Source: Gautieria morchelliformis
Taxonomy: Eukaryota > Basidiomycota > Agaricomycetes > Gomphales > Gomphaceae
Assembly (NCBI GenBank): GCA_015179125.1
Contig: WHVA01000099.1
Span: forward strand, 204,912-268,911
Direction: 5' to 3'
Length of the DNA: 64,000 bases
Within the stretch, counting starts at the first letter, position 1; the number at the start of each line of letters is the position of its first letter. Under the pieces are notes generated by a model, which saw only the letters and a list, made by a program, of their open reading frames with translations, was not told where the DNA came from and did not search any database. The position numbers and the translations under genes are program-made. Shown here piece after piece: positions 1,792-59,683 of this stretch.

Positions 1792-1806
1792 TCCCCGACT
1801 CTCTCC
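1792..1806 (+). repeat. 5' terminal inverted repeat of the Helitron2-like element
   Basis: TCCCCGACTCTCTCC, preceded by the target A. It is exactly complementary to 10995-11009. Confidence 0.75.
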
Positions 1807-11036: not shown

Positions 11037-11149
11037 TACACTACCATGCTACCCCATACACTACCCTGTACGCTACCATGTGCGCTACCCCATACACTAC
11101 CCTGTCAGCTACACGGTACGCTACCACATGAGCTACCCTGTACGCTACC
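11037..11149. repeat. 12-bp minisatellite, continuation
   Basis: About nine copies of the CTACCCTGTACG/CTACCCCATACA unit, in register with the array ending at 1791. It is interrupted at 11150 by an LTR. Confidence 0.85.
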
Positions 11150-12710: not shown

Positions 12711-12713
12711 CGT

Positions 12714-13135
12714 GTGCTACCACGTTTGCTACAACGTACGCTACCACGTGTGCTACCAGGTACGCTACCACCGCTACCATGTGGGCTACCACGTACACTA
12801 CCACATGCACTACCACGTACACTACCAGGTACAATACCACATATGCTACCACGAACGCTACCATGTATGCTACCACGTGCACTACCAGGTACACTACCAA
12901 GTATGCTACCACGTACACTACCAGGTACACTACCATATATGCTACCACGTACGCTACCATGTACGCTACCACATACACTACCATGTACCCTACCAGGTAC
13001 GCTACCAGGTATGCTGCCATGTATGCTACCATGTACGCTACCATGTACGCTACCACATACACTACCATGTATACTACCAGGTACGCTACGAGGTATGCTA
13101 CCACGTCCTCTACCAGGTACACTACCACATACACT
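12714..13135. repeat. 12-bp minisatellite, variant CTACCACGTRYG
   Basis: About 35 copies of a unit related to the 1384-1791 array, with ACG replacing CTG. Several frames are open on both strands with Tyr/Val/His- or Thr-rich repeats; these are not genes. Confidence 0.9.
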
Positions 13136-13263
13136 AATTCTATAATCTCTCTACGTTGTTCCTTAGATATCTGTTTGAGATTTGATATTATCTCATCTTT
13201 TTCTTCTATCCATTCTGTGATTCTGTCAATCCTTTTAGAGAGCTTGACAATCTAGGCTTCCAT
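13133..13263 (-). pseudogene. Short coiled-coil coding remnant
   Basis: From ATG at 13263 (minus) the frame gives one early stop, then about 40 charged residues with heptad-like spacing (KRIDRITEWIEEKDEII...). It ends in the minisatellite. This is probably a fragment of a transposon or host protein; the family was not recognised. Confidence 0.35.
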
Positions 13264-24110: not shown

Positions 24111-24828
24111 GGAGAGTACAGCACTCAGTTGGGTGATGGAGAACGAGGTGCGATGCTGTAGTCAGCCCAATTGCAGCGGAGCTCCAGCCACTTGAGTCAA
24201 GTCGGACGGCAGGTGCCGAGCTCAGAGGGCAAAGTAACGACTGCGTTCTGCACTTCCATCACTTTGTAGATTGTATCCATCTAAGCCGCACCTTATTCGT
24301 TTGATACTCTGTGGCCTTTCCTGCTATCCGTCCCAGTACTGGTATTGAATATTACAGATCACGGGCCCACGGCATACGGGCAGTTCTCCGATCGGGAGTC
24401 GTCGTCGATCGGGATGATGTTGGTCTCCCTGGCGGATGTAGTAGAGCGAAGTCTGGACTTGAGGTTGGAGGTCAGTTTGTATTCTATTCCGCTTTGGGCT
24501 CACGATGCATTTCATCAACATCCAGATGTAAGTCCAGCCACAGCAAAATCTACACCATCGTGCCCGGACTACAATTCATGGAGTTACTCGCCGTGCTGGT
24601 AAGGCCTATATCTGGTCTGGTAGTGTTGGGAGGCACGCACGTCAGCACATTTGCACTCATGCTTGTCCAGGTCTGACTGCCGAACGCACTGGCGATGACA
24701 CCCTCAACAGTTGACCGGCATAACTGAGAAACATTTTGAAATAGGCACGTCGGAACACGTGCTACTTACAAGCCTTCATCGAAGCTCTCCTCAGCAGCGC
24801 CATCCTTCCACGTAGTTAAATAGAAGCA
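24111..24828. other. Undefined region with a short fragment shared with 28.4 kb
   Basis: No gene recognised. 24650-24678 repeats about 29 bases found at 28412-28440 (TTTGCACTCATGCTTGTCC and on), part of the decayed minus-strand gene there. Confidence 0.5.
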
Positions 24829-27769: not shown

Positions 27770-28530
27770 CGGTTGACCAAGCATATTGTCAGCATGATCC
27801 TCGTCGTCTGAAAGGTGCAAGCACAGTCAGTAACAAGCATGGCTTTACATAAACACACAATGTTGTACTTACCGCTTGCGCGCGAGACTCGACTTCCCCA
27901 GCTCCATATTGACATCATCCTCCAGCAATTCCTGTATGTTTTCCAAATCTTCAGCAGGTACGTATGGGAGCTCTCTCTTATCCTTGTTGAAATTATCAAT
28001 ATAGTCGAATTTGATCAAGATCTGTTCTATTAGGTCGCCTCGCTGCAGAAGTTTGAGATCCTTGGTTGCCGCAAGTGGGACATTGACAGCGAGGCACCGT
28101 GGTTCATGGCTAAGTCACATAAGCAGTCCAGTGCGCCTATTGACCACATTGCTTCGTCCTCAGCATCCAACTCCTCAGCGCCGCGATCTCTGTTCCAGCC
28201 AACCCCCCCCCTTCTATTTCCGCTGGTGGGTCTCCAAACATTACTTCTGCCTCGTCAGGGGTCAGGGTATTCAGCCTTCAGCACCTTGTCATAGGCCTTT
28301 ATCGGGGTGTGCCTGCTCCTCAAGAACATCAAGTTTATCGATCCCTTGTTCGTTTGCATTTTCTGCACCATTGCAGTAAGACATTCGTCTCTCGATGACC
28401 CTCCAGTCCCATTTGCACTCATGCTTGTCCAGGTCTGACCCATACTCCATGAAAGTTACGCTCTTGGACCCTAGCGCCGCAGATGACGTGGCTAAGTTGG
28501 CTAGCAGTTCAGCTATCCTGGATTCCAACT
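27770..28530 (-). pseudogene. Decayed unrecognised gene, minus strand
   Basis: Frame 28530-28289 reads MESRIAELLANLATSSAALG and continues with charged coding-like residues. Coding-like sequence then continues in shifted frames (VLKAEYPDP; EDEAMWSIGALDCL; LKLLQRGDLIEQILIKFDYI; AEDLENIQELLEDDVNMELG) to a GTAAGT donor-like site near 27870. After it come an intron-like stretch ending TTTCAG and an acidic DDEDHADN. At least two frameshifts separate the pieces. I do not recognise the family. The patchwork region starts immediately to its right. Confidence 0.4.
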
Positions 28531-28704
28531 TCGTGTGAAGTTGCGCACCGCAGCGCTCATAAGGGATAACGTTGACGAAAACTAAGCCCCAAGGAGCTAA
28601 CAGCTAGCTGTTGGATAGGATACACAAGGCTTTGCCTAGAGGTACATCGAATTCATAGTCCATGGCTTGGCTCAATACCTGCACTGTTGAGGTCCACGAG
28701 TTTG

Positions 28705-29037
28705 TCACCCTATAGTCGAAAGCGAAAGCAGATGCATGTAAAACTGGCATGTACCTTCCTCAGAAGACTGTAGTTCTCTATGAGGCTGGTCTAATCTACA
28801 TGCATCGAATACACCCTTATACGGCCCCTCGACTCGAATGGTCATAAAAGGTCTTGGCTGATTCATTACGTCGCAACCAACGAGTGACAGGAAAGGCACA
28901 GGAAACACCTCACTTATTCGGGAATGACCTACTACTAGATGTGACCAGCATATCAACGCTGCGAGTCCTGCTATTTCGGACAGACTAGCTTGGCAGGATG
29001 TCATAAAGGTGTCCTGGATTGGCCTGACTCGACGCAT
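28705..29037 (-). pseudogene. Chimeric fragment ORF in the patchwork
   Basis: A 110-codon minus frame. Its middle piece (EVFPVPFLSLVGCD) reappears at 32206-32276, and its next piece (QPRPFMTIRVEGPY) reappears in the plus ORF at 31493. In each place it has different neighbours. So the frame is an assembly of blocks, not a gene. The pieces look coding but are unassigned. Confidence 0.5.
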
Positions 29038-29296
29038 GTTACATATCAGTCTCTGTGGGGAATATGTCAGAAGATCTCAGATAGGGGTCCCCTCGTCGGA
29101 GTTATGAGGAGACTACTAATGGGAAGAACGGTGTATAACATAATTAAACATATGAGATGAGTGCATATTCCACACTCATGGCTGCGGCACCCCCTCTCCT
29201 TGTGCCTGATGGCAGTGGGACAGCGGATACCCGATGTGAGATGACGTAGTTAGAGGTATAATTGGAGTTCATAATTGGCTTAGCTGGAGTTCGCGA

Positions 29297-29806
29297 TTGA
29301 CAAGAGAATACATTGGGCTAGTCGACAACGAACAACGAAACAAGCAAGCTTCGTTGAGGCCAATACGTCCTTCGACATCGACTGTGTTACAATCGTTAGA
29401 GCCATGGTGTCACGACATGACCGATATCATATACTACAACATCCACGACGCGGTACTCCACCTCTCCCTAGCGAGCAAAAGCGGGTGGATAACTGAGCTT
29501 ATATCCATGTGCTCAGTTTTCAGGTGTCCTCTCTCAGACGCGGCAAGGTTCATAAGTGGCACCATGGTATCTACCATGCTTGCATCGTACGCCGTATCCG
29601 TGGGACGGATGATAGACTGGTCAGAGGAGGAATGGCCAGAAACCAGGTATAGAGGTGCTTTGGTTCTAGGTCCTACACCTGTCTGCTTGCCTGCAGTGGC
29701 CCGGTACTCCAACACCACATCGGAAACCGGAAGGAGGATGGAAATTTTTAGATTAAGATATCAATTAGTGCCTTTAACAAGTGGAATTCTATTGCTCAGT
29801 GATTGA
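29297..29806 (+). pseudogene. Family B DNA polymerase, Exo III and YxGG-like fragment
   Basis: Within this 169-codon frame, ~residues 40-115 contain DIIYYNIHDAVLHLSLA, which fits the Exo III motif (Y-x3-D) of family B polymerases. A helical stretch follows, then YRGALVLGPTP, which fits the Y-x-GG/A..V..P box that precedes the palm. The frame's first part belongs to blocks shared with 34662-34709 and 35347-35398. Established: the Exo III Tyr and Asp support 3'-5' proofreading. The palm motifs are not here but at 34979-36439 on the opposite strand. Confidence 0.6.
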
Positions 29807-29824
29807 AACCACTGTTCGTCCTTC

Positions 29825-30533
29825 TTCTGTGCGCTGACTAAGCCTTTCGAGGCGTGTCCAGCACTGATGAATGAGGGTCACGTGACCGTGTCGACAGAAG
29901 AACGGCGTCGATCCAAGGGATAGTCAAATCAAAAGCGTTCGCTTTTAAGGTAGTATAGATTAAACAGTGATAGTAGACTCTCAACGAAGATTTGGAATAA
30001 ACTATCATGATCTGAGCTCTGTAGCTATCAAACAAGACTACAGCAATTTCAGGAGGCAGAATAATCGATTCTGGATGATCTCGTTCATACATGTGTACTA
30101 GCTATTTATAATATATTGATAGTAACTACTAGTGTTCAAGATATTGGATGGATGGGTCGAAAAACTACTTTGTAACTAAGGGGTGACTAATTTATAGTCA
30201 TAAGGTCATGGGGTGATGGGGATGGTGTTAGGATTGTCTGGGCCTTGAAATAGAGATCTGTACCTAGTATACAAAGCCCCTGTCCACATGATGTTAAGAT
30301 AGTAATCAGTCAGATGTGTCATGATATTAGAATAGAAAAATGGATCTGAGTCTACCCTGCCCAGCATATATGCTGGTCTTGGAGATGGGGCCGCTGTCTC
30401 TGTGCCCTTTCTGTGGGGCAGCTGATTGAATATGTATACTGCAGGTGACTTTCTCAGGTCACTCCACAGTATCTCATACCCCTGCGCAGTCTATTATTTT
30501 CTGCGGCGTTTGGTGCCCGCACCCCTCGGTGCC
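29825..30533. repeat. Dispersed ~700 bp repeat, copy B
   Basis: Matches 645-1380 in the same orientation. It interrupts the patchwork, so it was either inserted into it or joined with it. The 3' end is shared up to GGTGCCCGCACC. Confidence 0.7.
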
Positions 30534-30964
30534 TATGGCCTGGCGCCTGTTGACGTCATGGCCGATGCCATCACCCGATAGGCGCGCCGTCCCTGATCGA
30601 CCGCACGTGGTCGACGCTCGAACTCCTGTATATCACCCGATTTGTGAGTAATATAGCATGACATAAATTTCGTGTGATCGTCGTCTGCGCCGACGTCTAT
30701 CATGAATATAATTTTTGTTTCTTTTGATTTTTCTTTTGATTTTCTTTTCTTTCTTTATTAGTTTCCTTTTATATATAAATGATTTGGAGTGAAATAATTG
30801 CGTTTGTCACAACAGAAATGTCACCTCTGGGATATCGCAGTTGTATGTCCGCGTATGACAGCTTCCTTCCAAGATGGAACAGAATTAACTACACATGCAC
30901 TTAGATGCTCCCACCCGGAGACCAACCAGCTCCCTTAGACAACCCTAAGTGACAACTCCAGTAA
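30534..30964. other. No gene recognised
   Basis: Contains a GC-rich stretch and then a T-rich tract (30706-30775, TTTTGATTTTTCTTTTG) that could be promoter-like. No coding feature was recognised. Confidence 0.35.
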
Positions 30965-31087
30965 GATGCAGGCCGAACGTTTTATGCCAGGCAACATAGT
31001 ACCTGGTGATTCAAACTATGAGGGTCCGGACCCAGAATATGAAGTCGAGGATATTGGCCGCTGCCCCTCTGCTAAGTTCGCAGCTTA
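30965..31087 (+). CDS. Small acidic ORF, unassigned
   Basis: A 40-codon ORF from ATG 30965 (MQAERFMPGNIVPGDSN...) to TAG 31085-31087, rich in Pro, Glu and Asp. It could be the start of a longer gene cut off by block joining. No family recognised. Confidence 0.25.
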
Positions 31088-31492
31088 GCCGCGGGGATGT
31101 TAGCAAGACAAAGAGCAGTTTAACCAATCCAAGTTGTGACTCTGACGTCAAGCCTAGGTGTCTCACCATTTGAACACGAAGACTATGAGATGGAGAGGGA
31201 GCTTAGCTACCCGGTCGTTACTAGACCCGATAGTCTCAAGGCCAGACAAGCTCCTGGAAGGCCGTAGGGTACTAAACGCAGACGAGTGAAGCACTGACCG
31301 AAGTTGCTATTAGACCGCAGACTAATCCATTAACGAGGCTGAGGTAGGTACAAGGAGACCGAGGCAAAGGATTGGGACAGTAGTAGGAACAGGGAGAAAG
31401 TGATACAAGGAGTGATGCTAAGACTTGGTATTCACGGTCTAATCAATTAAACGAATCTGCTCCGTTGCAAGTCCCTACCGTTCCTCACTTCC

Positions 31493-31837
31493 TTGGGTAT
31501 TGTAGCTATGTCGAGACTAGTCCCTAGAGCTATAATGGATATTGTTACCTCAGTGCTCCAAATTGGAAGCTCCTGGAGCGCGAGAGAGTCCGTCGAAGAT
31601 TCCAAATTTAAGACTCCAATCCGACTGACTGAGGAGCAGTTGGTAGATCTGGAGGAGGAGACATTCGGAGAGTACATATGGACGGTACTCAATAAGAATC
31701 AGCCAAGACCTTTTATGACCATTCGAGTCGAGGGGCCGTATATGGAAACAGTTTCGTGTGCTGACATAGGGTCCAATGAGAGAACCTCTGAACTTGATGT
31801 GGAGGTTTGTGATGCGCTGGCGGTACCTGGTGAATGA
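31493..31837 (+). pseudogene. Chimeric fragment ORF in the patchwork
   Basis: A 114-codon frame. Its first 65 codons (EEQLVDLEEETFGEYIW) are unique, the next 15 are the block at 28820-28864, and the rest is the inverted block shared with 32688-32750. This shows an in-frame join of unrelated blocks. Confidence 0.5.
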
Positions 31838-32501
31838 CGAGGATGTAGAAGCTATGAAGGAATTCTTCAAGTTGAGTCCCAACCTGGCGAATCTTAGTCT
31901 GAGTTCGATCGCGTGTGAAGTTGCGCACCGCAGCACTCATAAGGGATAACGTTGACGAAAACTAAGCCCCAAGGAGCTAACAGGTAGCTGTTGGATAGGA
32001 TACACAAGGCTTTGTCTAGAGGTACATCGAATTCATAGTCCACGGCTTGGCTCAATACCTGCACTGTTGAGGTCCATGAGTTTGTCACCCTATAGTTGAA
32101 AGCGAAAGCAGATGCACATCTTCGAGACCCTATGGGTTTCCTCTTGCCCATGATCCCATCACTCTGTGGATTACAACGACGAGCCAGCTAGAATCTCGAG
32201 GTGTAATCTAGTAGTAGGTCATTCCCGAATAAGTGAGGTGTTTCCTGTGCCTTTCCTGGCACTCGTTGGTTGCGACATAACTCGATAGGTCACACTAGTA
32301 TCTTCTTCGATGCATATCAGACCATCGGCAGGCATGCCAGACATAAGGTCGTTGTCCACCACCCTCGATACGGTCTGCTTTTGGCCGTGTAGATACGATG
32401 GTGTCAACGGAGGCGTTAGTTAAGGTAAGCCTCGCTTACATCTTGGCTCACCAGAACAGCGAATGAAAGGAGGAAGAGCAGAGGTGGTATGATGTCTATG
32501 A

Positions 32502-32862
32502 CGAAGCGCTGAGGGAGGCAAATCGTACTCGAGATGGTGCGGTAGAACTTACCGAATTCCAGTTCTGAGAGGTACCGGAAGATCATCATGGGAACTTGGA
32601 CGCAATGGTTACGGTGATGGCTAAAGAACGAGGTACGTCAAGCGATGATGTGTTGTTACTGAGCCTTACCTCAGGTGTGGTATCCACCGGCGCATCACAA
32701 ACCTCCACATCAAGTTCAGAGGTACTCTCATTGGACCCTATGTCAGCACACTACTCCAGCATAACTCTCGCCCCAGTTGTAACCGACAAACATTTAAACT
32801 GGCAGGTAATCATGTCACCTGCGAGGTCAACATACACAGTCCATTTCTATAGCCAACAATAG
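32502..32862 (+). pseudogene. Fragment ORF with an inverted, split second copy
   Basis: Reads EALREANRTRDGAVELTEF, one TGA, then VPEDHHG and MVTVMAKERGTSSDDVLLLS. The same sequence occurs inverted at 36882-37147. There it is cut in two by the block found at 31217-31268. Unassigned. Confidence 0.45.
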
Positions 32863-33220
32863 GCTTATGATACACCTATGGAAGTCCATCGCGTCAAATG
32901 ACACGGGAAGGTGGTAACACCGGAGGTGATGTGGAGGAGACAGGTGATGCACACGACCAGGAAGGTGGAACTCACGAGGAGGGTTCCCAGAAGCAGGAGA
33001 CAAGTGTAGAAAAGACCGAAAGGCTTAGTATCTAACAGCCGTTTACTTGTCCCTAGTAAGACTGGCCTGCTGCATCTTAGTAAACTAAACACTGTAAGTG
33101 TGGCTAGTATCTGCTAACAGGTAATATGGAGGACTGTGCTCGCCCTCCGTAGAATGCCTTAGGCTCATTCGTTCAAGGTGTGGTGATACACAGTCCATTT
33201 CTATAGCCAACAATAGGCTT

Positions 33221-33544
33221 ATGATACACCTATGGAACTATAGACCTGGCCTATGCTATGTTGTGAGCTCCGTAGAGAAACTTTACCTTATGGACATCAA
33301 CGTTGCCGGGTTAGAGTACATATCTATGAGGTTAATGCCCAAGTTGAAGGAGCTACACTTGTACCTCCCGTATCTTTTGCAGCTATACCCAAGTGCAATG
33401 TCGGCGCTAAGTAAGACCCCCCGGGTGATAATGGTGATACAAAGAGAAGATATAAAGGAATACACATTCGTAAGGGAGTTGCCAAGCAACATAACCCTCA
33501 AAGACTGGTCACCCGAAGCTGCACTTCACTTTGGCGCCCACTAG
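33221..33544 (+). pseudogene. Leucine-rich-repeat-like fragment
   Basis: A 107-codon frame with Leu/Ile at regular spacing (SVEKLYLMDINVAGLEYI, then MPKLKELHLYLPYLLQL), resembling F-box/LRR proteins. The first codons belong to the block shared with 32832-32883. It could be host-derived rather than viral. Confidence 0.35.
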
Positions 33545-34200
33545 CAAGTACATTAGGCTATCTCAGTAGCAGTAGCAATACCCACGACAGTAGTAGCGTG
33601 TACTAAACGCAGATGAGTGAAGCACTGACCGAAGTTGCTATTAGACCGCAGACTAATCCATTAACCATACTAGATACCGTTAGGGTCATAGCCATTGCCA
33701 CTGACATAGCTAACTATGTCGAATATGGTTCGTATGTCTAAATGCGGGAGCAGTTGGCAGATGAGTGATGTAGAGGCCTACAGCATATCCGTTGAACCTA
33801 AGACAAGTAGCGCTAGCTTCTTTGGAGTTCTGGCGGACAACGTAGAACCACGCATCAACGTCGCGGTTTCCGGGCTTTTGGCTGTCATTTCCACCGGAGC
33901 ATACAGGGCCAGGAGACAAGGTCGCGACACAACACGGCCAAAAGCAGACCGTATAGAGGGTGGTGGACAATGACCTTATGCCTATATGCACTGACGTGAG
34001 GACGGGAAGAACGTTTACTCCTGACATAGTCATGGCAGCATCATCGATTCATAATCGTTGTACACCAGGACAAGGACATAAGACACCTGATCCGTTTCAT
34101 GGACCTGGCAGCCAAGGTAGCCGAGGAGTCAACAGTGGACGAATTTTCAAGCAGACTGGGGTCCACACCGGAAGGAATGGATCTCAAACCGCACACCCCC

Positions 34201-34590
34201 TTATCTAACATCCCGAGAGAGAGGATGTACAGCACCAGGGAGGTGAGCGAGTATCGTGTTTATCGTCGCACTTTTACCCTCACCCCCTGCACCATACAAA
34301 TATAGAGCTCTTGGCCTATCGACCGGATCCAATAGTGCGTTACCTACAATCCACTTAACTAGCTTGAGGTCACAGGGTGTCATGACGTTACTTAGGCTTA
34401 CTTCTCCTCTGCTGGGCTTGAACGATCTGACCGTAGATGACATAGTTGTTATCCTTATAGGAGATATACATAGGCCTGTACTTCGCTTAAGCGGGGCCTT
34501 TCCTCCCTCGAACCGCACTACCCTATGTATTGGGGTAAGTTTGATGCCCTTTGAGGGATCATTCGGGTCTATGAAGGATACCATAGACAT
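34201..34590 (-). pseudogene. SF3 (D5-like) helicase fragment
   Basis: A 129-codon minus frame. Near residue 70, LKLVKWIVGNALLD is followed by ALYLYGAGGEGKSATINTIL at ~93-112. A hydrophobic strand, then G-x-G-x2-GKS/T, is the Walker A of superfamily 3 helicases of the D5/primase-helicase kind, used by many DNA viruses and plasmids to unwind DNA at forks. Walker B and motif C are not visible because the frame ends at a block joint. The N-terminal part (PIHRVVRFEGG) is unassigned. Confidence 0.6.
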
Positions 34591-34742
34591 CCAGCTACTT
34601 ATGCGAAGTTGTTAGGGTGCAGTCTAACACACAGTGGAGAGTGTTGAGATAGTTGTCTACCTGGGCTAGTCGACAACGAACAACGAAACAAGCAAGCTTC
34701 GTTGAAGCCACATATAACTTGGGACATAGGTGTATAACATAA

Positions 34743-34994
34743 TTAAACATATGGGATGAGTGCATATTCCACACTCATGGCTGCGGCACCCCCTCTCCTT
34801 GTGCCTGATGGTAGTGGGACAGCGGATACCCGATGTGAGATGAGGGCATACTCCACACCATAGGTACATATGTGTTCACATACCTCGCTTACGAGGACTT
34901 GAGCTACCTTTGGACGATCCTTCCTCACTGGAGCTAACCCCTTAATTTCCTGTCTCAAATTACCGCTAGGAGTATGTACTAGACCGTAGTACAT
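34743..34994 (-). pseudogene. Family B DNA polymerase, thumb-entry fragment
   Basis: After a frameshift near 34990, the polymerase palm frame continues here: MYYGLVHTPSGN, then IKGLAPVRKDRPKVAQ. This fits the conserved K-x-YYG box and the following KG..xVRRD box of family B polymerases, which contact primer-template DNA. The coding is cut near 34844 by the block shared with 29130-29244. Confidence 0.65.
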
Positions 34995-36439
34995 CTTGGG
35001 CTTGACACTAGCTTTAGCCTCACGGAGGCGAAAGGTGTATTGTCTAACACACGGTGGAGAGTGTTGAGATAGTTGTCTACCGTGATATGATGCCTAGACA
35101 CCTTGGTTAAGAACACAGAGTCTGTATCTCTGTATATAACCTCAAATCCTAAAGCCGATGCAACCGAGCCTAGCGTGTTTCTAGCTTCCTCTAGAGTCGC
35201 ATACTCAGGTCTGACTACCAGGCGAGGGCGAAATTCAAACGATGCAAGTTGCATTAGACCTGGCACATGCCGTCGCAGAGGCGTGGCAGAAATCCCATTA
35301 CGGCATAATACATCTATGTAGACTAGAGACCCATCTATCATCTGTTCAGCTCTAACGATTGTAACACAGTCGATGTCGAAGGACGTATGGGCCATACTCG
35401 CCTCCCAGGCGAACACAGTGAGTCTTGCGTCTGGCCTGCATGTATACCATATATAACCGCAGCCTATAACCCAGCACTGCTCTCCATCCGCTTTCCACCT
35501 AAATACGTTAGCTTCCTTGGGAGGCACCAGGACGTCTAGGACCTGTGGACATGCCAGCCTGCACTCAAGCACCAACCGTTGTGGGATGTAGCGCGATAGT
35601 GAAGAGGCATGACCGAAGCTAGTATGAATCCACTTCAGTGCTGCTGAGATTATAGCCCTCGAAGGAGGTACGTCACCTAGTAACTCTAGCTCTGACATAT
35701 AAGTGTCAGATAACTCGTGGTAGTCGCAGCGCATAACCCAGTCATTGTAGTACACTCTCTTTGTCTTAATAACACACTTGTAAGACTGGTCGGTGTGTCT
35801 GGGGGCCATTAAATCGGGCAGTGTATGCTGAAGGTATGCTACCTCCCTTGACTTGCATAAGGTCATGCCCGGACAGAGGACCACTTGTGACTCAGTATAT
35901 TTCAGAGTTGCGATTTCGTCGCTTCGTAACCTCAGTCTGCTACTCACGACGTTACCACCCACTTTGACCGAGGTGGGTACACCATATTCAATGCATTCAA
36001 TGACTTGTGACTTCACTGAGCTGTATATAAGCTTAGATATAGACTTCTCTATTCTTATCTCGTACTCTGTCGTTGATCCTCCATGGTCTGATAGGTCTTC
36101 TAAGCTCAGAGTCACCGGTCTCAAGACTATAGCATCAGAGGGTACAATTCTGCGTTCTGCGGTCACCTTAGTACTCAGCAGATCACCGGAGGTTATGGCC
36201 ATGAGAATCTGAGCTTTGCTAACACCGGTGCTACACCTGCACTTCACTTCCACCTCGGGTTCATCTGCGCCTAGCCTCAATTGCCTTCTTTCTGCCACGT
36301 AAGGTTTCCCACATGCAGGGCAAGGTGAAGACATAACTGTTGCCTTAATTGATTTCTTGGTGGGAGCCAATCCACGCATATGCGTACACATAGAGTTGAG
36401 ATTTATAAATACACAGTCTGAGGTGACCTTTGTCTCCAA
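34979..36439 (-). pseudogene. Family B DNA polymerase, palm fragment
   Basis: A 486-codon minus frame, the longest in this region. Residues 11-16 (INLNSM) sit where motif A (D-F-x-S-L/M-Y-P) would be. C40, C43, C67 and C69 form a possible zinc ribbon. YRDTDSVFL at ~436 is motif C, with the two catalytic Asp. The Kx3NSxYG motif B was not found. An FDIDC at ~354 resembles Exo I and is out of canonical order, so internal rearrangement is possible. Family B polymerases replicate many DNA viruses and linear plasmids. Two stretches inside are duplicated elsewhere in the patchwork (35170-35223, 35347-35398). Confidence 0.7.
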
Positions 36440-36545
36440 TGTACCTCATTTTACCCTTATCGCTCATCAGGTCAGCAGTTGGATTCTTCACTCGATAGGT
36501 CACACTAGTATCTTCTTCAATGCATATCAGACTATCGGCAGGCAT
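36345..36545 (-). pseudogene. Fragment upstream of the polymerase palm
   Basis: A minus frame starting PADSLICIEEDTSVTYRV, which is also found at 32281-32342. It overlaps the palm frame out of phase. It is probably polymerase or neighbouring coding sequence joined to the palm with a frameshift; the domain was not identified. Confidence 0.4.
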
Positions 36546-37249
36546 GTCAGACCCCTCTAGCGTGTTTCTAGCTTCCTCTAGAGTCGCATACTCAGGTCTG
36601 ACTACCAGGCTCGACCAAGGTTTCCTCAGCCGGCAAGACTACTGCGACTCCTACGATGGAGATAAGCAGTTACGATGGGAAGGAAGAGTATAACGCCGGA
36701 AACATACTCGAGCTCTTCATAGCCTTAACGTCAAGCCTTAGCGGTTCATGTACCCTATCTGCGAGGCTCAAGCATACGAGGTCTCATAACGCGGTCAACA
36801 ATCACCGCTTCGACTTAGGCCCCGTGGCCATGCTAAATACAGAGTTTGACCATGGAAGGACGTAAGCATTTGGTCTCATGACCTGAGGTAAGGCTCAGTA
36901 ACAACACATCATCGCTTGACGTACCTCGTTCTTTAGCCATGTCGAGATACCTCTGAGTTACTAGACCCGATAGTCTCAAGGCCAGACGAGCTCCTGGAAG
37001 GCCATAGGAACTACCTGTCCCCAAGACCGCGTCACCGTAACCATTGCGTCCAAGTTCCCATGATGATCTTCCGGTACCTCTCGGAACTGGAATTCGGTAA
37101 GTTCTACCGCACCGTCTCGAGTACGATTTGCCTCCCTCAGCGCTTCGATCGTCTCTGATAGAGTACCTCATAGGACTTTATGGGCCTTCAGCGGTCAGCT
37201 CTAATGATTGTAACACAGTCGATGTCGAAGGACGTATGGGCCATACTTC

Positions 37250-37899
37250 TGGAGAACAGTAGCTAACAAGGCGTGTGTGTGTGGAGATGTAATACTATGT
37301 AGCTAGGAATACATGCATGTGATGGCTTTTAGATCAACACAGAGTAACTCGATGCGCTGGAAACTCAAGCGCGGGATGGTGACCAGCAAAATAATGGTGT
37401 TTTGTTCGGAGCAATCACTCGGTTCTTTATACATTCGTAAATACTGTATCTGGTGATAGGATAGAGGGGGACATGGGTGAGGGTGAGGTCATATGACGGT
37501 GGGCCGGGGGTAGATAATGTCTGTGGAGCACATAGGGGGTAGATCAAGGGGTGGTAACTACCTATGAGTACATTCTGTGGAGCAACATGGTGTGATCGTG
37601 AAATGGAACAGGGTCGTATCAGGGGAAGAAGGGGGCGAGAGGAATGATGGGACTCGATCGTCCGGTTGATCCGCGATGTGAATGCGGCGTTGTGAGCCCG
37701 TGAGCTCGCGTGGGCTCGCGCGGCTCCTCGACTCGGCTCGACTCAACTTGACTCAACTCACTGCACACGTGCGCACCTCGATGGATTCGTTTGATTCGCG
37801 GGGTAATGGGAACTTGTCGGCAGGAAGGAGTGGTCAGTAACTGGTGGATCAGGGAAGGATGAATGGGTCACTGGGTACTGTACAGGTCGTTTCCTAACA
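37250..37899 (-). mobile_element. 3' LTR of a minus-strand Ty1/copia element
   Basis: The right edge at 37899 reads TGTTAGGAAACGACC on the minus strand, directly after a CTTGAGGGGGTG polypurine tract (37900-37911), the same tract as in the copia element at 20708. The left edge is put at ~37250, where patchwork sequence ends. No target-site duplication could be confirmed. Confidence 0.6.
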
Positions 37900-38005: not shown

Positions 38006-38977
38006 CTACTGCAGCTGGATGTTCCCGGCGTCGATTTGATTGCGCGTGTAATGGTAGTGTGTGTCGATATGCTTAGTTCCGTTACTGCTGATGTCGTTCT
38101 TCGAGAAGAGGATGAACGACTGGTTGTCTGTGAAGAGCGGAATAGGGGTAAATTTATGATGAAAATCCTTCCCTAGGCGTATCAGCCATATACCCTCGAC
38201 CGACGTGAATGACCCGGCGACTAGTTCGGACTCCATCGATGATCTGGACATGCAGTGCTGCTTCTTGGATGCCCAAGAGAGTGGTGACCCGTTGAAGGTA
38301 AAAACCCAGCCCGTCGTGGATTTGCAATCGTTCACGTCGCCCGCAAAGTCGGCGTCAGTGAAACCGGCTAGATTGTGTGCGTACCCCTCGATTCCGTCGC
38401 CGGCTGCCCTGTATAAGATTCTGTACTCCTTCGTGTGTAACAGGTATCGTATTATGCGTTTCGCGGCCTCCCAATGCTGCAGGGTCGGTCTGGAAATGAA
38501 CTGGGCGCATTTGTTGGTTGCGTATGAGATGTCGGGGCGGGTCACAATGGCGCAGTAGTTCAGACTGCCAATGAGGGACGCGTAGGGAATGTCGAGAGCG
38601 TCGTCAGTGCTGGCGGCCGTGTGGAGATCGATCGACGGGTCCATGGGGGACGTGATGGGCCTGCCGGGGGGGATATCGAATCTTTTTGCGATAGTAGAAA
38701 CGAATGACGGTTGAGATATGTGGATTGTACTCAATGATTTATTTCTGTTGATCCTGATGCCGAGGAGGCGTTCAGGCTCTCCAAGGTCTTGGATGTCGAA
38801 GCTCCCCTTGATGTCTGTTACCATTCGATCCATGGACTGTACAGAGTCAGCCGCGAGAAGGCCATCATCGACGTACCACCCTGCTATCTCGATGGAGCTG
38901 CCATCTCCGAATCGAAAGAAAACGGTGGTGTCGGCTTCCCCGGCCCAGTTCTGTTTGCCTTGCCAGTTCCACTCCAA
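38006..38977 (-). pseudogene. Copia reverse transcriptase (C-terminal) and RNase H fragment
   Basis: An uninterrupted 323-codon frame. It begins in the RT just before the catalytic GWYVDDGLLA, continues LGIRINRNKS, and ends with RNase H (FTDADFAGDVNDCKSTTGW, MESELVAGSFTSVEGIWL, TDNQSFILFS). It is a relative of, but clearly different from, the copia element at 16-20 kb. Everything 5' of the YVDD region is missing past ~39010, so it is a 5'-truncated insertion. Confidence 0.85.
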
Positions 38978-39290: not shown

Positions 39291-40835
39291 CTTACAATGT
39301 CCCCATGCATAGCATGCTTCTCCCCATGCATAACATTTAATGCATGTCTCTACGCATAACATGCATGTCTCCATGCATAACTTGCGTGTCCCCATACATA
39401 GCATGCGTATCCGCATGCATAGTGTGCGTGTCCCCAAGCATAGGGTGTGTGTCCCCATGCATAACATGTGTGTCCCCATGCATAGTATGTGTAGCATGCC
39501 CTCAAGTATAGCATGTGTAGCATATCCCCAAGGGCCTCAAAGTGAAGGAAGCAGAGGCGGTTACTTATTATTAACTTTTAGCAAAGTCAGGGACATGTAT
39601 CAATATCTATTTTGTGACATATACAGACATAAATAAAATAGTCAAGGAAACCATATTTAAGCAGCTGCTGTCATTAATTTTAGCAAAGTCAGGATTATCT
39701 ATTTTTTGAAAAAATGTCAAGAAAATGTCCAGTACATGTAAGCTGAAACTGTTATTAATTTTAGCTAACATAGGATTATCTATTTTTCGAAAAATGTCAA
39801 AAAAATGCACTGTACATTTAAGCTGGAGCTGTTGCCAATTTTCACAAAGTCAGGATAATTTATTGACATCTATCTGCGAAAAAATGTCAAAAAAATACAG
39901 TACATTGAAGCAGAAGCTGTTATTAATTCCCAGCCAAAGCCAGAGAACCCAGAGACTGACAGAGAAACCCAGAGCCCAACCAAAGCCATAGTAAGCCAGC
40001 CCCCAGTATAGCCAGAGAACACCAGAGCGGAGTGCCTGGTGAGCAGCTTTACAGTAAATAAAACAACACAAAACCACATTGAAAGCAGAATCTGTTGTGG
40101 TGAATTTTAGAAGAAACTCATTGATGTCTATTTGCGAAAAAAAACCTGAAAAATATAAATATTAAAATCCATTTTTGAAATAATTCACAAAAATATAAAG
40201 CAGATGTGACAATACAATATGATGGAAACAAAAGGAACCAATAAAATTACAAACACAGATAAAATAAAATACATGGCAATGCATTAAAAAAGAGATACTA
40301 TCTACCAATAGAAAGCCAGCAAAGCCAATAGATAGCCAGCAAAGCAAAGCAATAGAAAGCCAGCCAACCAAAGCAATAGATAGCCAGCCAACCAAAGCCA
40401 TATGCAGCCAGCCAGCTAAAGGAGGAGAGAGACACCAGAGAAAGCAGACAGCAGACAGAGCAGAGAGCAGAGAGCAGAGAGCAGAGAGCAGAGAGCAGAG
40501 AGCAGAGAGAGCAGACAGCAGAGAGAGGAATTGCTGGTCAAGCAGATTCCTGGCGTTCCATCCTACCGTTCTGCCTTTATGCACCGCGCGCGTGTCGTGC
40601 ACGGACCACGCTCGCATATGCGCGCTATGGTCACGAACGGGTCACGTGACGGCTGCACAGTGTTCATGCTCGCGCCTGCGCCGCTCGCCGTTGACCTAAA
40701 GAGAGAGCCCTGGAGCCGGCAGACCGGCGTAAACCGGTGATAGGGCCAGGGGCTCGTGCTCCGCTGACAAACTAATGACCAAGCATTGGTCAGCGTGCCC
40801 GCAACCTCCCACCGAGCTACTTTCATATAGTGTAA
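39291..40835 (-). mobile_element. Non-autonomous Helitron, 3'-truncated (array unit 1)
   Basis: It contains, left to right, the 21-bp minisatellite, an AT-rich region with ~85-bp imperfect repeats (GCTGTTATTAATTTTAGC..., TCGAAAAA), an AGCAGAG tract and the GC-rich 5' head. It ends exactly at the CTAG of the next unit (40836). The minus 5' end reads TTACACTATATGAAAGTAGC. Its own hairpin/CTAG end is missing on the left. Confidence 0.75.
39297..39530. repeat. 21-bp minisatellite (GTCCCCATGCATAGYRTGYRT)
   Basis: About 11 copies. Unit length 7 x 3 keeps frames open on both strands (Met/Leu/Cys/Gly/Thr heptads), so the long frames here are not genes. Confidence 0.9.
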
Positions 40836-40864
40836 CTAGGTGGGTACCCGCGCTTCACGCAGGG
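40836..40864 (-). other. Helitron 3' end: hairpin region and CTAG (unit 2)
   Basis: The minus strand ends ...GCGTGAAGCGCGGGTACCCACCTAG followed by T. The stem is partly decayed here (CCCGCGC opposite ACGCAGGG). Confidence 0.75.
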
Positions 40865-41017
40865 GTGTAGGTCAAACGCCTCAGTAAGGTCAAACGCATC
40901 AGTAAGTCTAACACATCGGTAAGTCTAACATATAAGTAAGGTCAAGTACATTGGGGAAAATCAAAGTAATCAATTTGCATCAAGTAAAATGAAGTAAAAT
41001 GAAGTAAAACACATAAA

Positions 41018-44000
41018 TCAAGGAGCTCTAAGTAATACATCTTTATATACAATGTTGGTTGTGTCCAAACCCTCCTCAAGCAAGACCTTGACTCTGTTCC
41101 AATTGGTCCCTCTTGATACACCAACATACAGCTGACCATGTCCAAACACTGGATATCTCAGGTCCAGCCCAACGTACCCAAAGACTGTCCATGAGACTTG
41201 TTGATAGTCATTGCAAATGCCAAACGCACTGGAAACTGCCTCCTTTGCAGCACAAATGGCAACTCTCCCTCTGATGGCTTAATGATGATCCTGGGGATGA
41301 AAGCAATATTGCCTGCACATGGACCTGAGATGATCCTGACCTCCAACACTCTAATGCTTATCCTCACCAACCGCAACCTTGTCCCATTGCATAGTCCTTG
41401 CTTCTGATCCAAATTGCGCAACAGCATCAGAGGCACTCCAGGCTTGACTTCCAAGTGAGCAGGAGGAAGACAGCCCATCTCTATGGAATTCAGATACTCC
41501 ACAGGATACCAATCTGCATCATCGGATTCTGCAATGGAATTTGCGCAGTGCAAGACCTGAGCATCACCTGGAAACTCCCTAAACACCATGGAATTGATCT
41601 CATTGACCTCAGTGTTTCTGGCAGAGAGGATGGCACACTTCAAAAAGTAATTGTCCTGGGCAGGGACATGACTGCCAATGCCAGGGTATATTTCCTGGAT
41701 CAGATCTTCAATTCCAGGGCCACAAACCATGTGAGGAGGCAGTGAGAATGTATGATCTAGTGGGGGATCCTTTCCCTGGCCCACATTCTGCAGCCATTCT
41801 GCAAACCTGGCTCTGTCAGGGTCATTTCTCACCCGCATGTTCTCTGTCAGATGGAGGACCTTGATCTTTGGCCACAGATATGACTTCTGAAGGGTAGCTC
41901 CCACGATATCCTCCTTGGAGCCTTTAGGGACAATTGGCAGAGTCTGCTGAAAGTCACCTCCAAAGGCGACTGTGATGCCACCAAAGGGTCTGTCAGGCTG
42001 GTCAAGGAAATCCCTCAGTGTCCTGTCAATGGCCTCTATGGCATGGTGATGCTGCATTGCAGCCTCATCCCAGATGAGGAGACTGGCCTGTCTCAGCGTG
42101 TCAGCCTTGTCAGAGTTCTTTGTGATGGAGGAGAGAGAGCGCTCATGGACAGGAATGGGAATTCCAAGCATGCTATGAGAGGTTGTACCCTTAGTGAGGA
42201 TAAGTGCAGCCATTGCAGATGAGGCTACTGCAATCACAATGAGGCTCTCCACTCTACAGGAGTGGATTAGAGTGTTCCAAGTGAATGATTTCCCAGCACC
42301 ACCTGAGCCAGTGACAAAAAACATTTGTCCATCAGGTTTCCCATGAGCATCTCTGGTCAGTGCCGACTATAATATCTGATCATGGGCAGACCTTTGCCCC
42401 TCATTCAGCTTAGGAACCTCCTCATCAGCCTTTTCCCTCTCTTCAACAGCATCATAGTCCCTCTGCTCAGCTATGAACCTGTTTCCAATGAGGGCCTCCC
42501 ACTCGCCTGCCACCCGAGGCATATCATCAAAGCTGCTCAAGGACATTCCACCCTGATGGAGGATTTTCTCCAGGAGAAAGAGGCCAAAATCATAAACCTG
42601 ATCATCCCATGGATCCTGCATACCATGTCTGATTTGGAGCTGATGTCTGAGATCATCACATATGTGCTCCTTGAAGCCATCCCATAGTCTGCCAGGATTT
42701 GATGGATTGCAATGGCCAAGGATGGTGGCAAAGGATGTCTGAGCTGAGCATCTGTTTTCATGCCACTGGCTTCCTGGAGACACAACCTCAGCTCCTGATC
42801 ATCATCCAGAAGTCCCCTTGCACGACAGGCCTCCTTGTAAGTAGCATATTGTATGCCATCCACCGACCTAAGCTCCTCAAAGGATCTAGCCCCCTTGACC
42901 ACTGTGAGGAGAGTGCGCACAAAAAATCTCTCTCCTGATTTAGGGTTTGCAAAGTGAAGGCAATCGATGCTATAACCTCCTTGGCGTGGTGTCCATACCT
43001 TTTCCTGTGAGTGCCAGGTAAAATGCTCAGGAAACTCCACATAGAGCAGATCACGTGCTTCAGGGTAGATATCATTGGCCTCAAAGTAAGTCATGAGCAG
43101 TGTCTTTTTCGCCTCAGCCCTTTCCAGGATGTTGTCCACATCCTGGTTGGGATCAAATATGATTGTGTGGTGGTCCTTTTCATGGACTGGCAGTGCCATG
43201 ACTGCAGGAACCTGGGTGTGGATTTCCTGCTTCAGCAACCTCCAACAGGCCTCATGAGCACTGACATAGCAAGCGTCCAGGTACTGCTTAATTTCATCCT
43301 GGGTGCGACCAAACTCCATGGTGGTCCGATCATGGCCCTTGTAGAGATACTTGTGGATATACTTGATACACCTCATATTGATGGTGAGTTCAGGGTTGAT
43401 GTCACACCAGAATTTGAGGAAGAGCAGAGCAGAGTATGGCACAACCCATCTGTTGTCCAGCATGTCACCTCTGATATTGTGCAGCCTTCCATCATTGCGA
43501 CGACGATATTTTGGATATCCATCCTCATTCAGACTGGTTTCCTCACAGAATGGCTTTGGGAAGTTTTTCTTGCACTTGCCATTTTCCATGCAGGGTGCGT
43601 TTCGATTCATTTCTCCACAGGGACCATGTGTCATCAGCTCACAGACCAACCGGTAGAGGACAGGATGAGTCTCTGGATTAGGGAACTCTGCCGAAATCAT
43701 TGAATCCACCTGATGTGGATGTCTGATCTTAGAATCTCTTTCAAACCAGATAGGAATATGCATGTGTAGGAGTCCCCTTTTCTGGAATTCAATGGTGTGC
43801 ACGCGAGCAACGGTTTCCCCAAATATCTTTTCCTTGACGATCAAGTCAATGAGGTATTTCCTTTTGAGCTGGAACACCCGCGACACCAGGTCAGGCCTGT
43901 CCTGAGGCGTTTGTCCAGGCAACAACGCATCCAATATCTCCTGCCAGTTGGGATTGGCAGTCATGGTAATAAAGAGATCAGCCACACCATGCTTCCTTGA

Positions 44001-46195
44001 AATGGCCAGAGAGTTCTGCAGGGTTTCCTGCATGTCCCGTGTCCCCCCCTGAAATGTGGCAGGCAGAATGGATCTTGTGCCCAAGTTGTTTGGATCTCTG
44101 TCATTGTCATTGCGATGAAAGGCATCCATCATCTGGTTATACATCTCAGCACGGAGAGTGTGTTGATTTGTCCTGATCCACCACAGCCTGCTTTGCTCTG
44201 CAGCGGCCCAAGAGTCTACAATGTACTGCTGGAATAATTTGCCAGCACGCAGGAGTGTTGTAGGCTCTTCTGTCTCTGGAAGAGATGATAGGAATGGTAC
44301 TGAATTTGGGTGACATGCCCACGTCGCTCATGCTCGCCTGGTAATTGGCGATAGTGAATACCAGGTTGCCACCCCAACTCTCCCCTGGGAAAGAGCAAGA
44401 CATAGTGAAGAGAGGCATAGTTTGGATTCATATCGGATACCCTTCGGAAGCGTCCACCTTTGAGCTGGACAATAACATCCCTAGGTTCAGGGTTGATGCC
44501 ATCTCCAGGAAGAACCACCGCAATCTCATCCGCAGTAGGGATATTATACCTCCTAGGATCCCTGTGTTCCCTGTATGTGAGCCTAGCCCGGATCTCACCA
44601 TTCTGTCCCTGAGCTCTGAGCCTCTCAGCCGCTTGTATATATATGGCAACATGAGGATTGCATAGGAGGAGCATTTCCTGCAAGTCTCCCATGATAGTTG
44701 GAGACAGACCTGGGTTACGCACCTTCCTCTGTGCCAAAGCCAATGCTGGATCATATATATAAAGTTGGGCATACTGTATCTGCCCCCCAGGGTTAGGGAT
44801 GAGAGAGCCATGAATATGATACAGTTCGCCCTGTAGCTTGAGGACATATGGACCACGACCCTCCCGAAGCAAATTGAGGTCAAAGTCGGCACCCAAGGAA
44901 GTGAATGCAAACGCCGCATAATACTGCCTGATGTTCTGGCGAAACTGTTTGGCCTCAGGGTCCTGGCCCTCTAAGAGCCGTCTCAATGGCTGAGGGAGCA
45001 CTGGCAGCTCTGGAAGCTGCATCTTTCCTTCTAAACAGCAATCACCAAATCTGGGCCGCCGATTTGAGGATCTCAGCAGGTGTTCTGCCATCCAGTGTAA
45101 TGCTCCACAGTCAGGGCAGGGAATAACCATGGGACCCAGATCATGACGCTGCACATCTGCCTCAATTATTCTAGAGCAACCAAGTGGAATAGGAGGAGGA
45201 GGTCGCTGAGGACGCTGCAGAGGTACAGGAAGTGGCTGAGGAGGCTGATGAGGTGCAGGGAGTGGCTGAAGAGGCTGTGGAGGTGCAGGGAGTGGCTGAG
45301 GAGGCTGAGGAGGTGCAGGCAGTGGCTGAAGAGGCCGCAGAAGTGCAGGGAGTAGCCGAGGCATTGGTCTTACTGCATTAGCCTGAGCCCGCAATGCTGC
45401 GACCGCTGCAGAACCTACTACAGGAGGTCTAGGAGCTGGTTGTAAAGGTGCCTGCCTGGGTCTTCCCAAGGGCTGTGCTGGGATAGGCTGTATACCAGCA
45501 GTGTGAGCATGCAAATCTGCCACCGCTGTAGAGCCTACTACCGAATGTCCAATTCCAGCCGCCTGAGCATGCAACTGAGCAATTGCTGAAGAACCTACTA
45601 CAAGGTCTAGGAGCTGGTTGTAAAGGTGCCTCCCTGTGTCTTCCCAAGGGCTGTGCTGGGATAGGCTGTATACCAGCAGCATGAGCATGCAAATCTGCCA
45701 CCGCTGTAGAGCCTACTACAGGTTGTCCAATTCCAGCCACCTGAGCACACAACTGAGCAATTGCTGCAGAACCTACTACAGGAGCTGGCTGTCCAGCGTC
45801 AGGCCTATTTCTTCTGAGGGGCTGTAATCGTGGGATAGCTGCTAACTGTGCACAAAGGGCTGCCACCTGGGATCAGGTGGATATGATGGCCCCGCAAGCA
45901 TAGGAGGGCGCGATGATGGCCCTGCAGGCATAGGAGGACGTGATGATGGCCCCGCAGGCATTGGTGGACGTGATGGCCCTGCCACAGGTTGTTGAAAAGG
46001 ATTGGCTGCACTTCTTCTAGAAGGAGGGTGAGGGATGGCAAAAGGCGGTGGTGGAGGGGGTGGCTGGTTCTGAGCTCCAATATGCGCTCTCCGATTACTG
46101 GGTGGTGTCATTACCTCCTGCCCCTCCCTCGCACTTTGACGCACCTGCCGACGGTTGCTCTCTGGGGTAGATGGAGCCCTGAGAAATGCAGGCAT
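41018..46195 (-). pseudogene. Helitron Rep-PIF1 helicase, broken copy
   Basis: Reading from ATG 46195: a Pro/Gln-rich N-terminus with a PAGPSSRPPM-type repeat, a 178-bp tandem duplication (45426/45604) that shifts the frame, Pro-Leu repeats, a zinc-ribbon-like CPDCGALHW..EH..., then the Helitron N domain. Rep motifs HMHIPIWF and YIHKYLYKG follow, then the PIF1 helicase (GSGGAGKS, WDEAAM, GGDFQQTLP). Compared with the copy at 59684-63097 it has 1-nt losses near 44260, 42735 and 41171, and a CGG-to-TAG type stop near 42368. The last helicase motif is KSHGQS rather than KSQGQS. The original stop would be at 41018-41020. Not functional as read. Confidence 0.85.
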
Positions 46196-59534: not shown

Positions 59535-59562
59535 CTAGGTGGGTACCCGCGCTTCGCGCGGG
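59535..59562 (-). other. Helitron 3' end: perfect hairpin and CTAG (unit 6)
   Basis: CCCGCGC-TTC-GCGCGGG then GTACCCACCTAG on the minus strand, 122 bp past the stop codon of the replicase. Confidence 0.9.
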
Positions 59563-59683
59563 GGTGTAGGTCAAACGCATCGGTAAGGTCAAGTGCATTG
59601 TGGAAAATAAAAGTAACCAATTTGCATCAAGTAAAATCAAGTAACACACATAAACCATATCAAGAGAAGTGGCTATAATAAAA

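What the first reader, a model, noticed from the sequence alone, without database searches (positions are those of the whole stretch)
28532..37247. A shattered and reshuffled DNA-virus-like insertion
At least 15 blocks of ~40-205 bp occur two or three times, direct and inverted, each copy with different neighbours, at ~95-100% identity. The blocks include family B polymerase and SF3 helicase coding. Ordinary transposon nesting, tandem duplication or gene decay does not give this pattern. It looks like fragmentation and random re-ligation of an invading DNA genome, with some pieces copied more than once. A programmed rearrangement or an assembly artefact are the alternatives.
Basis: partly seen in the sequence, partly recalled or inferred. 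Interest (0 to 1): 0.93.

Follow-up and report, generated by a model that had tools for sequence, protein, structure and literature searches.

The report
Shredded DNA virus in mushroom genome
A stretch of a truffle-like mushroom's genome is a jumble of short pieces, in both directions and some of them two or three times over, of a roughly 20,000-base virus-like DNA element of a kind we found no paper on, apparently joined at random during DNA break repair.

Summary
Between 28532 and 37247 there are 18 repeat pairs (16 families, one in three copies), 10 direct and 8 inverted, 94-100% identical; 50 Markov resamples gave none. The host is the basidiomycete Gautieria morchelliformis.

Of 20 such proteins 12 have a longest contig of 19-28 kb; one polymerase is from a chytrid. 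Mapped to them, pieces of the three genes are interleaved. Overlap statistics give a donor of about 18 kb (12-29); gene coverage about 16 kb. Ten two-sided joints show 0-8 bp microhomology or 1-2 extra bases.

Copy differences are mainly CpG decay, and a dispersed element with a 5-bp duplication sits inside, so an assembly error is unlikely. C504 holds a second, differently ordered locus.

Best reading: several near-identical genomes of a ~20-kb virus-like element were cut into ~100-bp shards and captured by end joining. Lineage and degree of shredding look new; no capsid gene was shown; repair route and cutter are inferred.

The parts
28532..37247 (.). Scrambled insertion: shards of one kind of virus-like DNA element, 18 repeat pairs in both orientations
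   Evidence: Self-blastn and Markov control; homologue map. Left edge not exact; right edge abuts an LTR.
28532..28736 (+). 205-bp block, second copy 31912-32116 (+), 97%
29405..29680 (+). Polymerase B shard, residues 267-358 of P0007 (88% identity)
   Evidence: E=6e-50
29746..30814 (.). Later insertion of a dispersed 1069-bp element (solo-LTR-like), GAAAT on both sides
   Evidence: 39 other places scored for window 30000-31000; ends and flanks
31742..31801 (+). Possible polymerase B shard, P0007 residues 384-403 (50% identity); weak
   Evidence: E=0.007; a presumably chance hit in the LTR reaches E=0.004 in the same call
32116..32163 (+). Polymerase B shard, P0007 residues 104-119 (94%)
   Evidence: E=2e-5
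32261..32341 (-). Capping-like gene shard, P0002 residues 391-416 (74%)
   Evidence: E=2e-7; near-copy at 36490-36552
32502..32676 (+). Block contiguous here, but split by a ~91-bp piece in its inverted copy at 36881-37147
34210..34629 (-). Helicase shard (P4/D5-like), residues 107-246 of P0006 (82% identity), holds the P-loop
   Evidence: P0006 matches TIGR01613 below its cut-off
34622..34661 (-). Polymerase B shard (near P0007 529-547), 40 bp, copy at 35042-35081
   Evidence: E=0.004
34842..35167 (-). Polymerase B shard(s), P0007 residues 504-556 and 565-620, with a gap of about 8 residues between
35183..36334 (-). Largest piece: capping-like gene, P0002 residue 1 to about 385 (67% identity); KADGE motif
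36426..36608 (-). Capping-like shard, P0002 residues 372-432, overlaps the previous piece in gene coordinates
37195..37247 (+). Last block, copy of 35346-35398 and (inverted) 29358-29402
37248..37899 (-). LTR-like block of a Copia element abutting and hiding the right edge
   Evidence: 10 copies start at 37248; twice ~5.1 kb apart in each of three contigs; RVT_2 frame 38006-38977

Best explanation
Shown: the region is a patchwork of short pieces, in both orientations, and the pieces that can be named come from three genes (family B polymerase, P4/D5-type helicase, capping-like protein) of one lineage of DNA element. Inferred: in a nucleus of an ancestor of this Gautieria strain, several near-identical molecules of a virus-like element of about 16-24 kb were cut into some 70 pieces averaging about 100 bp (one piece over 1 kb), and the pieces were joined in random order and orientation and captured at a chromosome break by end joining (classical or microhomology-mediated). 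Blocks present twice or three times are overlaps between pieces from different molecules. Afterwards the locus sat silent, lost CpG sites by deamination, and was hit by at least one dispersed element. A second such event (C504), apparently from the same or a very close strain, and a smaller captured stretch (C521/C211) exist in the same genome.
For: Repeat structure, 0 in 50 resamples. Homologue map with three interleaved genes. Of 20 lineage proteins (P0002-P0021) 12 have a longest contig of 18,971-27,952 bp, 8 a shorter one. Donor size: overlap formula 23.7 kb; simulation median 18.0 kb (5-95% 12.2-28.8), mean piece 94 bp (62-148; the lower bound touches the prior edge of 60), median 74 pieces; gene coverage 16.4 kb. 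Ten two-sided joints, overlaps -1, 5, 0, 1, 4, 1, -2, 0, 8, 2; null P(>=4)=0.016 per joint; 3 of 10 gives p=5e-4, 2 of 10 p=0.011. With each copy pair once, 14 of 26 differences are CpG transitions while CpG positions are 128 of 1147 (p=1e-7). C504 against the main locus: 17 differences in 399 bp, 6/5/6 over codon positions, 16 transitions. Yeast captures 22-492 bp extranuclear pieces by NHEJ, two to four joined in complex cases (PMC10802722, preprint, passages).
Against: The yeast passages report at most four joined pieces; some 70 is far outside that. No reads were available. No capsid gene was shown, and 5054 of 7738 inserted bases match none of the three reference genes, so some may be host-derived. 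Only 10 joints were resolved; the one at 32617 may be native sequence with the insertion in the other copy; the 8-bp overlap rests on a 91%-identical copy and holds a site at which copies differ. The codon-position test has only 17 differences. Template switching predicts similar joints.
Confidence: 0.74

Rival explanations
1. Replicative template switching (MMBIR/chromoanasynthesis-like): a repair polymerase at a chromosome break hopped between viral genomes, copying ~100 bp at a time, rather than ligating ready-made pieces.
For: Microhomology above chance; multiple copies of blocks; the 32502-32676 block is contiguous while its inverted copy holds a ~91-bp piece at the same point, as a switch away and back would give. 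PMC11724301 (passages) describes both routes.
Against: Some 70 switches would be needed (estimate); 4 of 10 joints are blunt or carry 1-2 extra bases.
Confidence: 0.17
2. Assembly or chimera artefact: fragments of a contaminating element wrongly joined by the assembler or library.
For: No reads could be examined; the block order was found once only.
Against: A 1069-bp dispersed element with its own 5-bp duplication lies inside; copies differ by 2.3% with CpG-decay bias; the region abuts an LTR-like block; a second scrambled locus is on another contig.
Confidence: 0.04
3. Capture by a transposon (Helitron or Pack-type): an element picked up many gene pieces and inserted them here.
For: Helitrons lie nearby (window 39297-63998); the C521/C211 pieces are inside a 1976-bp segment present twice at 98%.
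Against: The named pieces come from one lineage; the main locus was found once in the genome; 8 of 18 pairs are inverted. Terminal signals of such elements were not searched for.
Confidence: 0.04
4. Programmed rearrangement (ciliate-like scrambled gene) or a host-made archive of viral pieces, such as an RNAi memory locus.
For: Several loci hold pieces of the same lineage.
Against: Block lengths and joints look irregular; no such programme is known to me in fungi (recalled).
Confidence: 0.01

Closest known systems
Complex NUMTs and extranuclear DNA capture at breaks in yeast (PMC10802722, passages seen)
   Same: Short pieces of non-nuclear DNA joined to each other and captured by NHEJ with microhomology; sizes 22-492 bp
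   Different: Two to four pieces there, some 70 estimated here; donor here is a virus-like element, not mitochondrial or Ty DNA
Endogenous rice tungro bacilliform virus-like sequences (PMC526188, passages seen)
   Same: Rearranged endogenous DNA-virus segments with no intact ORFs, illegitimate recombination suggested
   Different: A plant pararetrovirus (genome of about 8 kb, recalled); here a ~20-kb polymerase/helicase/capping-like element and much shorter pieces
Rearranged NUPT/NUMT clusters in plants (PMC7037861, passages seen)
   Same: Pieces from different regions of one donor genome in non-uniform orientation
   Different: Organelle donor
Cytoplasmic linear plasmids / polinton-related elements (PMC11071308, passages seen; PMC6211774, search listing only)
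   Same: Small DNA elements of fungi with a family B polymerase; yeast ones are also known for capping enzymes (recalled; term counts in the listing)
   Different: Theirs is protein-primed PolB; the relatives here match PF00136 at 131.9 bits and PF03175 at only 12.7 bits (P0007), with polymerase delta as best solved match
Asfarvirus-like 1.5-Mb region in Rhizophagus irregularis (PMC10640383, abstract seen)
   Same: Integrated dsDNA virus in a fungus
   Different: There a continuous giant-virus region; here a small element in shreds

Membership tests
End-joining capture of fragmented extrachromosomal DNA (NUMT-like mosaic) | Pieces from one donor, random order and orientation | tested here: met
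   10 direct / 8 inverted pairs, p=0.81; gene map; the unnamed two thirds of the bases could not be assigned
End-joining capture of fragmented extrachromosomal DNA (NUMT-like mosaic) | Joints blunt, with short microhomology or a few added bases | tested here: met
   10 two-sided joints, -2 to 8 bp
End-joining capture of fragmented extrachromosomal DNA (NUMT-like mosaic) | Dependence on NHEJ or alt-EJ enzymes | not testable with these tools
   needs genetics
Endogenous element of a DNA virus | Viral-type replication genes with free-standing relatives | tested here: met
   PolB, helicase and capping-like relatives; 12 of 20 with longest contig 19-28 kb; that these contigs are free genomes is inferred
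Endogenous element of a DNA virus | Capsid or packaging genes | not tested
   no capsid reference of this lineage at hand; 24 distinct frames of the region and its flanks given to Pfam showed none
Polintons / cytoplasmic linear plasmids (Preplasmiviricota-related) | Protein-primed family B polymerase (PF03175 type) | tested here: not met
   Tested on the relatives: P0007 PF00136 131.9 vs PF03175 12.7 bits, P0009 124.9 vs 13.4
Polintons / cytoplasmic linear plasmids (Preplasmiviricota-related) | Double jelly-roll capsid, integrase | not testable with these tools
   the relatives' contigs could not be fetched; metagenome scans capped at 0
Nucleocytoviricota | PolB plus D5-like helicase plus capping enzyme | tested here: inconclusive
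Nucleocytoviricota | Large genome (tens of kb to Mb; recalled) | tested here: inconclusive
   donor-size estimates 16-24 kb and contigs of 19-28 kb speak against; contigs may be partial
SF3 (P4/D5-type) helicase | P4/D5 helicase profile and Walker A | tested here: met
   P0006: TIGR01613 E=4.6e-6, far below its curated cut-off (25.7 of 108.7 bits), PHROG 1156 E=1.3e-10; P0010 weaker (0.023, 4e-4); GxGGEGKS in 4 of 4
mRNA capping enzyme | KxDGE and downstream nucleotidyltransferase motifs plus methyltransferase motif | tested here: inconclusive
   motifs (recalled) invariant in 3 of 3, first ones kept in the C608 relative; no Pfam hit over cut-off, no PDB sequence hit, model too poor
Helitron or Pack-type transposon capture | Several copies of the captured patchwork | tested here: not met
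   main patchwork found once in the genome
Helitron or Pack-type transposon capture | Element termini around the captured pieces | not tested
   edges not exact; no terminal-signal search was run

The most novel reading that the evidence does not exclude
A so far undescribed family of ~20-kb dsDNA viruses (delta-like family B polymerase, P4/D5-type helicase, own capping enzyme) infects fungi from chytrids to mushrooms, and Gautieria carries fossils of its destruction: host or stress nucleases cut replicating viral DNA to ~100-bp pieces, which were swept into chromosome breaks at several loci, so that the patchwork records how fungal cells shred invading DNA.
Probability: 0.33. Interest if true: 0.92.

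Novelty: new variant of a known kind. Interest (0 to 1): 0.8.

Why it matters
A 2023 paper states that no dsDNA virus infecting fungi is known (PMC10640383, abstract). This locus ties a small dsDNA virus-like lineage, which I otherwise saw only as unnamed metagenome proteins and one protein labelled with a chytrid, to a mushroom nucleus. It is also an extreme natural case of shredding and re-joining of an invading genome: an estimated 70 pieces in one place. Because the pieces overlap, the patchwork itself yields donor size and piece length, a measurable record of how fungal cells break foreign DNA.

Tried and rejected
Viral collection: seven scans of IMG/VR. Six confirmed no relative. So the lineage was not seen there, but the scans are not exhaustive. 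Protein searches were capped too: 7994, 509 and 7995 candidates scored.

Structures: the capping model had mean pLDDT 46 and the helicase model 28; the PDB fold search of the former had no match at E<=0.001, so I draw nothing from either. PDB sequence searches with the window frame, A2 and A4 gave nothing; with A5, best matches are polymerase delta.

Host-genome searches: PF03175 and P0007 did not complete, so a full count of polymerase pieces genome-wide is missing; PF00136 stands in, and part of its 17 matches are probably cellular polymerases.

Considered and set aside: tandem duplication (no tandem order), nested transposons (blocks not dispersed genome-wide), plain gene decay (inverted and interleaved pieces), mitochondrial or cytoplasmic plasmid insertion (polymerase type). 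Rows dropped: rows with E above 0.01 were left off the map, among them 37194-37247 on the capping gene (E=0.037); one hit with E=0.004 lies in the LTR (37425-37547, P0010) and is taken as chance, which makes 31742-31801 (E=0.007) doubtful. In one search, 12 rows became 10 joints: one is the third copy of the same joint; 36552/36557 is contiguous in the capping gene. In one search the indel pair 31756-31827 / 32679-32751 was left out (17 of 18 pairs), and one site of the three-copy family counts twice; one search repeats the count with 16 pairs.
Full report
What was checked. The window lies at G000:C1103:204912-268911 of a 122-Mb, 1113-contig assembly. The deposited protein for this locus, on a contig of 268,911 bp, is named 'hypothetical protein JB92DRAFT_3312587 [Gautieria morchelliformis]', a basidiomycete of the Gomphales. 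Self-blastn of the window and a filtered count give 22 pairs of 38-260 bp at 94% identity or more, 18 of them inside 28532-37247: 10 direct, 8 inverted. I count 16 families, one with three copies. 50 Markov resamples give no self-hit at E<=1e-5.

Later insertions. 29746-30814 is a dispersed element (39 other places scored for window 30000-31000 at 93-99%) with GAAAT on both sides. From 37248 rightwards runs a block that 10 other places share from the same point and that occurs twice about 5.1 kb apart in contigs C809, C146 and C114, as LTRs do; a Copia-type frame follows (RVT_2 in 38006-38977). The first came after the scramble; for the second the order is not shown. The left edge is not located; a 30-bp block, 28410-28439, equals 24648-24677 and is unexplained.

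What the pieces are. The 486-aa frame 34979-36439(-) has three metagenome relatives, P0002-P0004 (730-807 aa; longest contigs 23,188, 19,347 and 19,224 bp). It is colinear with P0002 up to about residue 388 and then joins a polymerase piece. A second search, with part of the deposited gene model, found helicase relatives P0005, P0006, P0010, P0011 and polymerases P0007-P0009. A third, with a two-sequence polymerase alignment, found 15 proteins including those two; ten new ones are 39-60% identical, among them one labelled Clydaea vesicula, a chytrid, on a 26,321-bp contig, and three are more distant. Of the 20 proteins P0002-P0021, 12 have a longest contig of 18,971-27,952 bp and 8 of 2,312-13,089 bp. 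Helicase P0011 and polymerase P0014 are both listed with 21,972 bp, and P0010 and P0013 with 10,901 bp, which suggests linkage; the capping-like gene is not linked to them by this token.

Names. P0007 scores 131.9 bits with PF00136 and 12.7 with PF03175. P0006 matches TIGR01613 (E 4.6e-6, but 25.7 bits against a cut-off of 108.7) and PHROG 1156 (E 1.3e-10); P0010 is weaker. The window's own frames give only sub-threshold Pfam matches. The capping assignment rests on motifs that I recall (KxDGE, DGxxxI, DxGxG), invariant in three of three relatives, the first two also in a diverged host copy at C608; the only capping-type Pfam hint is LEF-4 at E 0.08 for P0003, below cut-off.

The map. tblastn places, along the window: polymerase 267-358 (+), 384-403 (+, weak), 104-119 (+), capping 391-416 (-), helicase 107-246 (-), polymerase 529-547 (-, weak), 565-620 and 504-556 (-), capping 1 to about 385 (-), capping 372-432 (-). 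The genes are interleaved, polymerase pieces on both strands. No hit at E<=1e-3 lies elsewhere in the window.

Other loci. C504:61317-62171 has pieces of polymerase and capping gene in another order. C521 and C211 share a 1976-bp segment, 98% alike, with a capping start (15 residues) next to a 128-bp piece. C368 shares 33 bp within a small palindrome; whether that is the same kind of thing I cannot say. C200 has a 25-residue match of 76% to the capping-like protein, perhaps one more shard, not followed. Older relatives with long open frames lie at C198 (helicase 27-28%, polymerase 33-41%), C608 (25-30%) and, by weaker hits, C342, C948, C637, C152 and C160. Stretches of C198 and C342 give no DNA match to the window region.

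How many pieces and how big a donor. If random pieces totalling 7738 bp overlap by 1264 bp in pairs, the donor is about 23.7 kb; simulation (336 of 60,000 draws accepted; donor prior 4-80 kb, piece prior 60-400 bp, one piece fixed at 1200 bp) gives a median of 18.0 kb (5-95% 12.2-28.8), mean piece 94 bp (62-148, the lower bound touching the prior edge) and 74 pieces. It assumes that all bases come from the donor. Coverage of the three reference genes (2684 of 5703 bp) gives 16.4 kb. These agree with the longer contigs without using them.

Joints. Ten joints have both sides resolved by other copies: overlaps -1, 5, 0, 1, 4, 1, -2, 0, 8, 2 (after dropping one row contiguous in the gene and one duplicate). 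Overlaps of 4 or more occur in 3 of 10 against 1.6% expected per joint (p=5e-4; without the 8-bp case, 2 of 10, p=0.011). The negative values may be sequence decay near the joint. The joint at 32617 may be native sequence, the foreign piece lying in the other copy.

Time after insertion. Among 17 of 18 pairs 28 of 1192 positions differ, 22 by transition. Counting each copy pair once (16 pairs), 14 of 26 differences are CpG transitions, with CpG positions 128 of 1147 (p=1e-7). Between the main locus and C504, 17 differences in 399 bp fall 6/5/6 on codon positions, 16 transitions, 9 CpG-type. So the differences look as if they arose after insertion rather than while the gene was in use, though 17 are few. 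The C521 piece (11 of 128, 10 transitions, 2 CpG-type) is more distant and could be another strain or older.

Mechanism. Yeast captures extranuclear DNA pieces of 22-492 bp by Pol4-dependent NHEJ, with nearly 4,000 of about 33,000 insertions holding two to four pieces (PMC10802722, preprint, passages). Plant organelle insertions and rice endogenous pararetroviruses show rearranged pieces (PMC7037861, PMC526188, passages). The same process, with much more donor DNA, would explain the locus. Template switching is the main rival (PMC11724301, passages). Which enzyme cut the DNA is unknown; that a host nuclease did so is my inference.

In print. Ten literature searches listed no paper on this locus, this lineage or this degree of shredding of a DNA-virus integration, judged by titles and starts of abstracts; several lists were cut (12 of 2,842 and 12 of 47), and the library holds open-licence papers only. 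PMC10640383 (abstract) says no dsDNA virus infecting fungi was known in 2023; PMC9894930 (one passage) speaks of a putative fungal host for giant viruses.

Noticed in passing
window 39297-45356 and 57997-63998: Two ~6-kb Helitron copies, 90% alike; the frame 59684-63097(-) is open over 1137 aa with Helitron_like_N and PIF1 domains.
   Followed up: partly
window 1390-1792, 11037-11149, 12712-13136: Three arrays of a 12-bp repeat related in sequence (CTACC-type unit), up to 35 copies.
   Followed up: no
L064:4635-5042 (G000:C368): 37-52 bp blocks at 100% in direct and inverted copies, and a 93-bp palindrome (90%) holding 33 bp identical to window 31164-31196.
   Followed up: partly
G000:C198:148701-152500 (L158, L159): Diverged helicase (399-aa open frame) and polymerase piece (231-aa open frame) of the same family, within about 3.5 kb, each gene piece unbroken as far as seen.
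   Followed up: partly
G000:C608:56603-57073 (L160): Diverged capping-like open frame with the KxDGE motif kept (KIDGE).
   Followed up: partly
G000:C200:137525-137599: 25-residue match of 76% to the capping-like protein P0002, E=1e-3; perhaps one more shard.
   Followed up: no
window 24648-24677 and 28410-28439: Identical 30-bp block at the left side of the insertion and 3.7 kb upstream, perhaps a templated insertion.
   Followed up: no
window 34979-36439 and around: The deposited gene model JB92DRAFT_3312587 splices pieces of three broken genes into one predicted protein, an annotation pitfall.
   Followed up: yes
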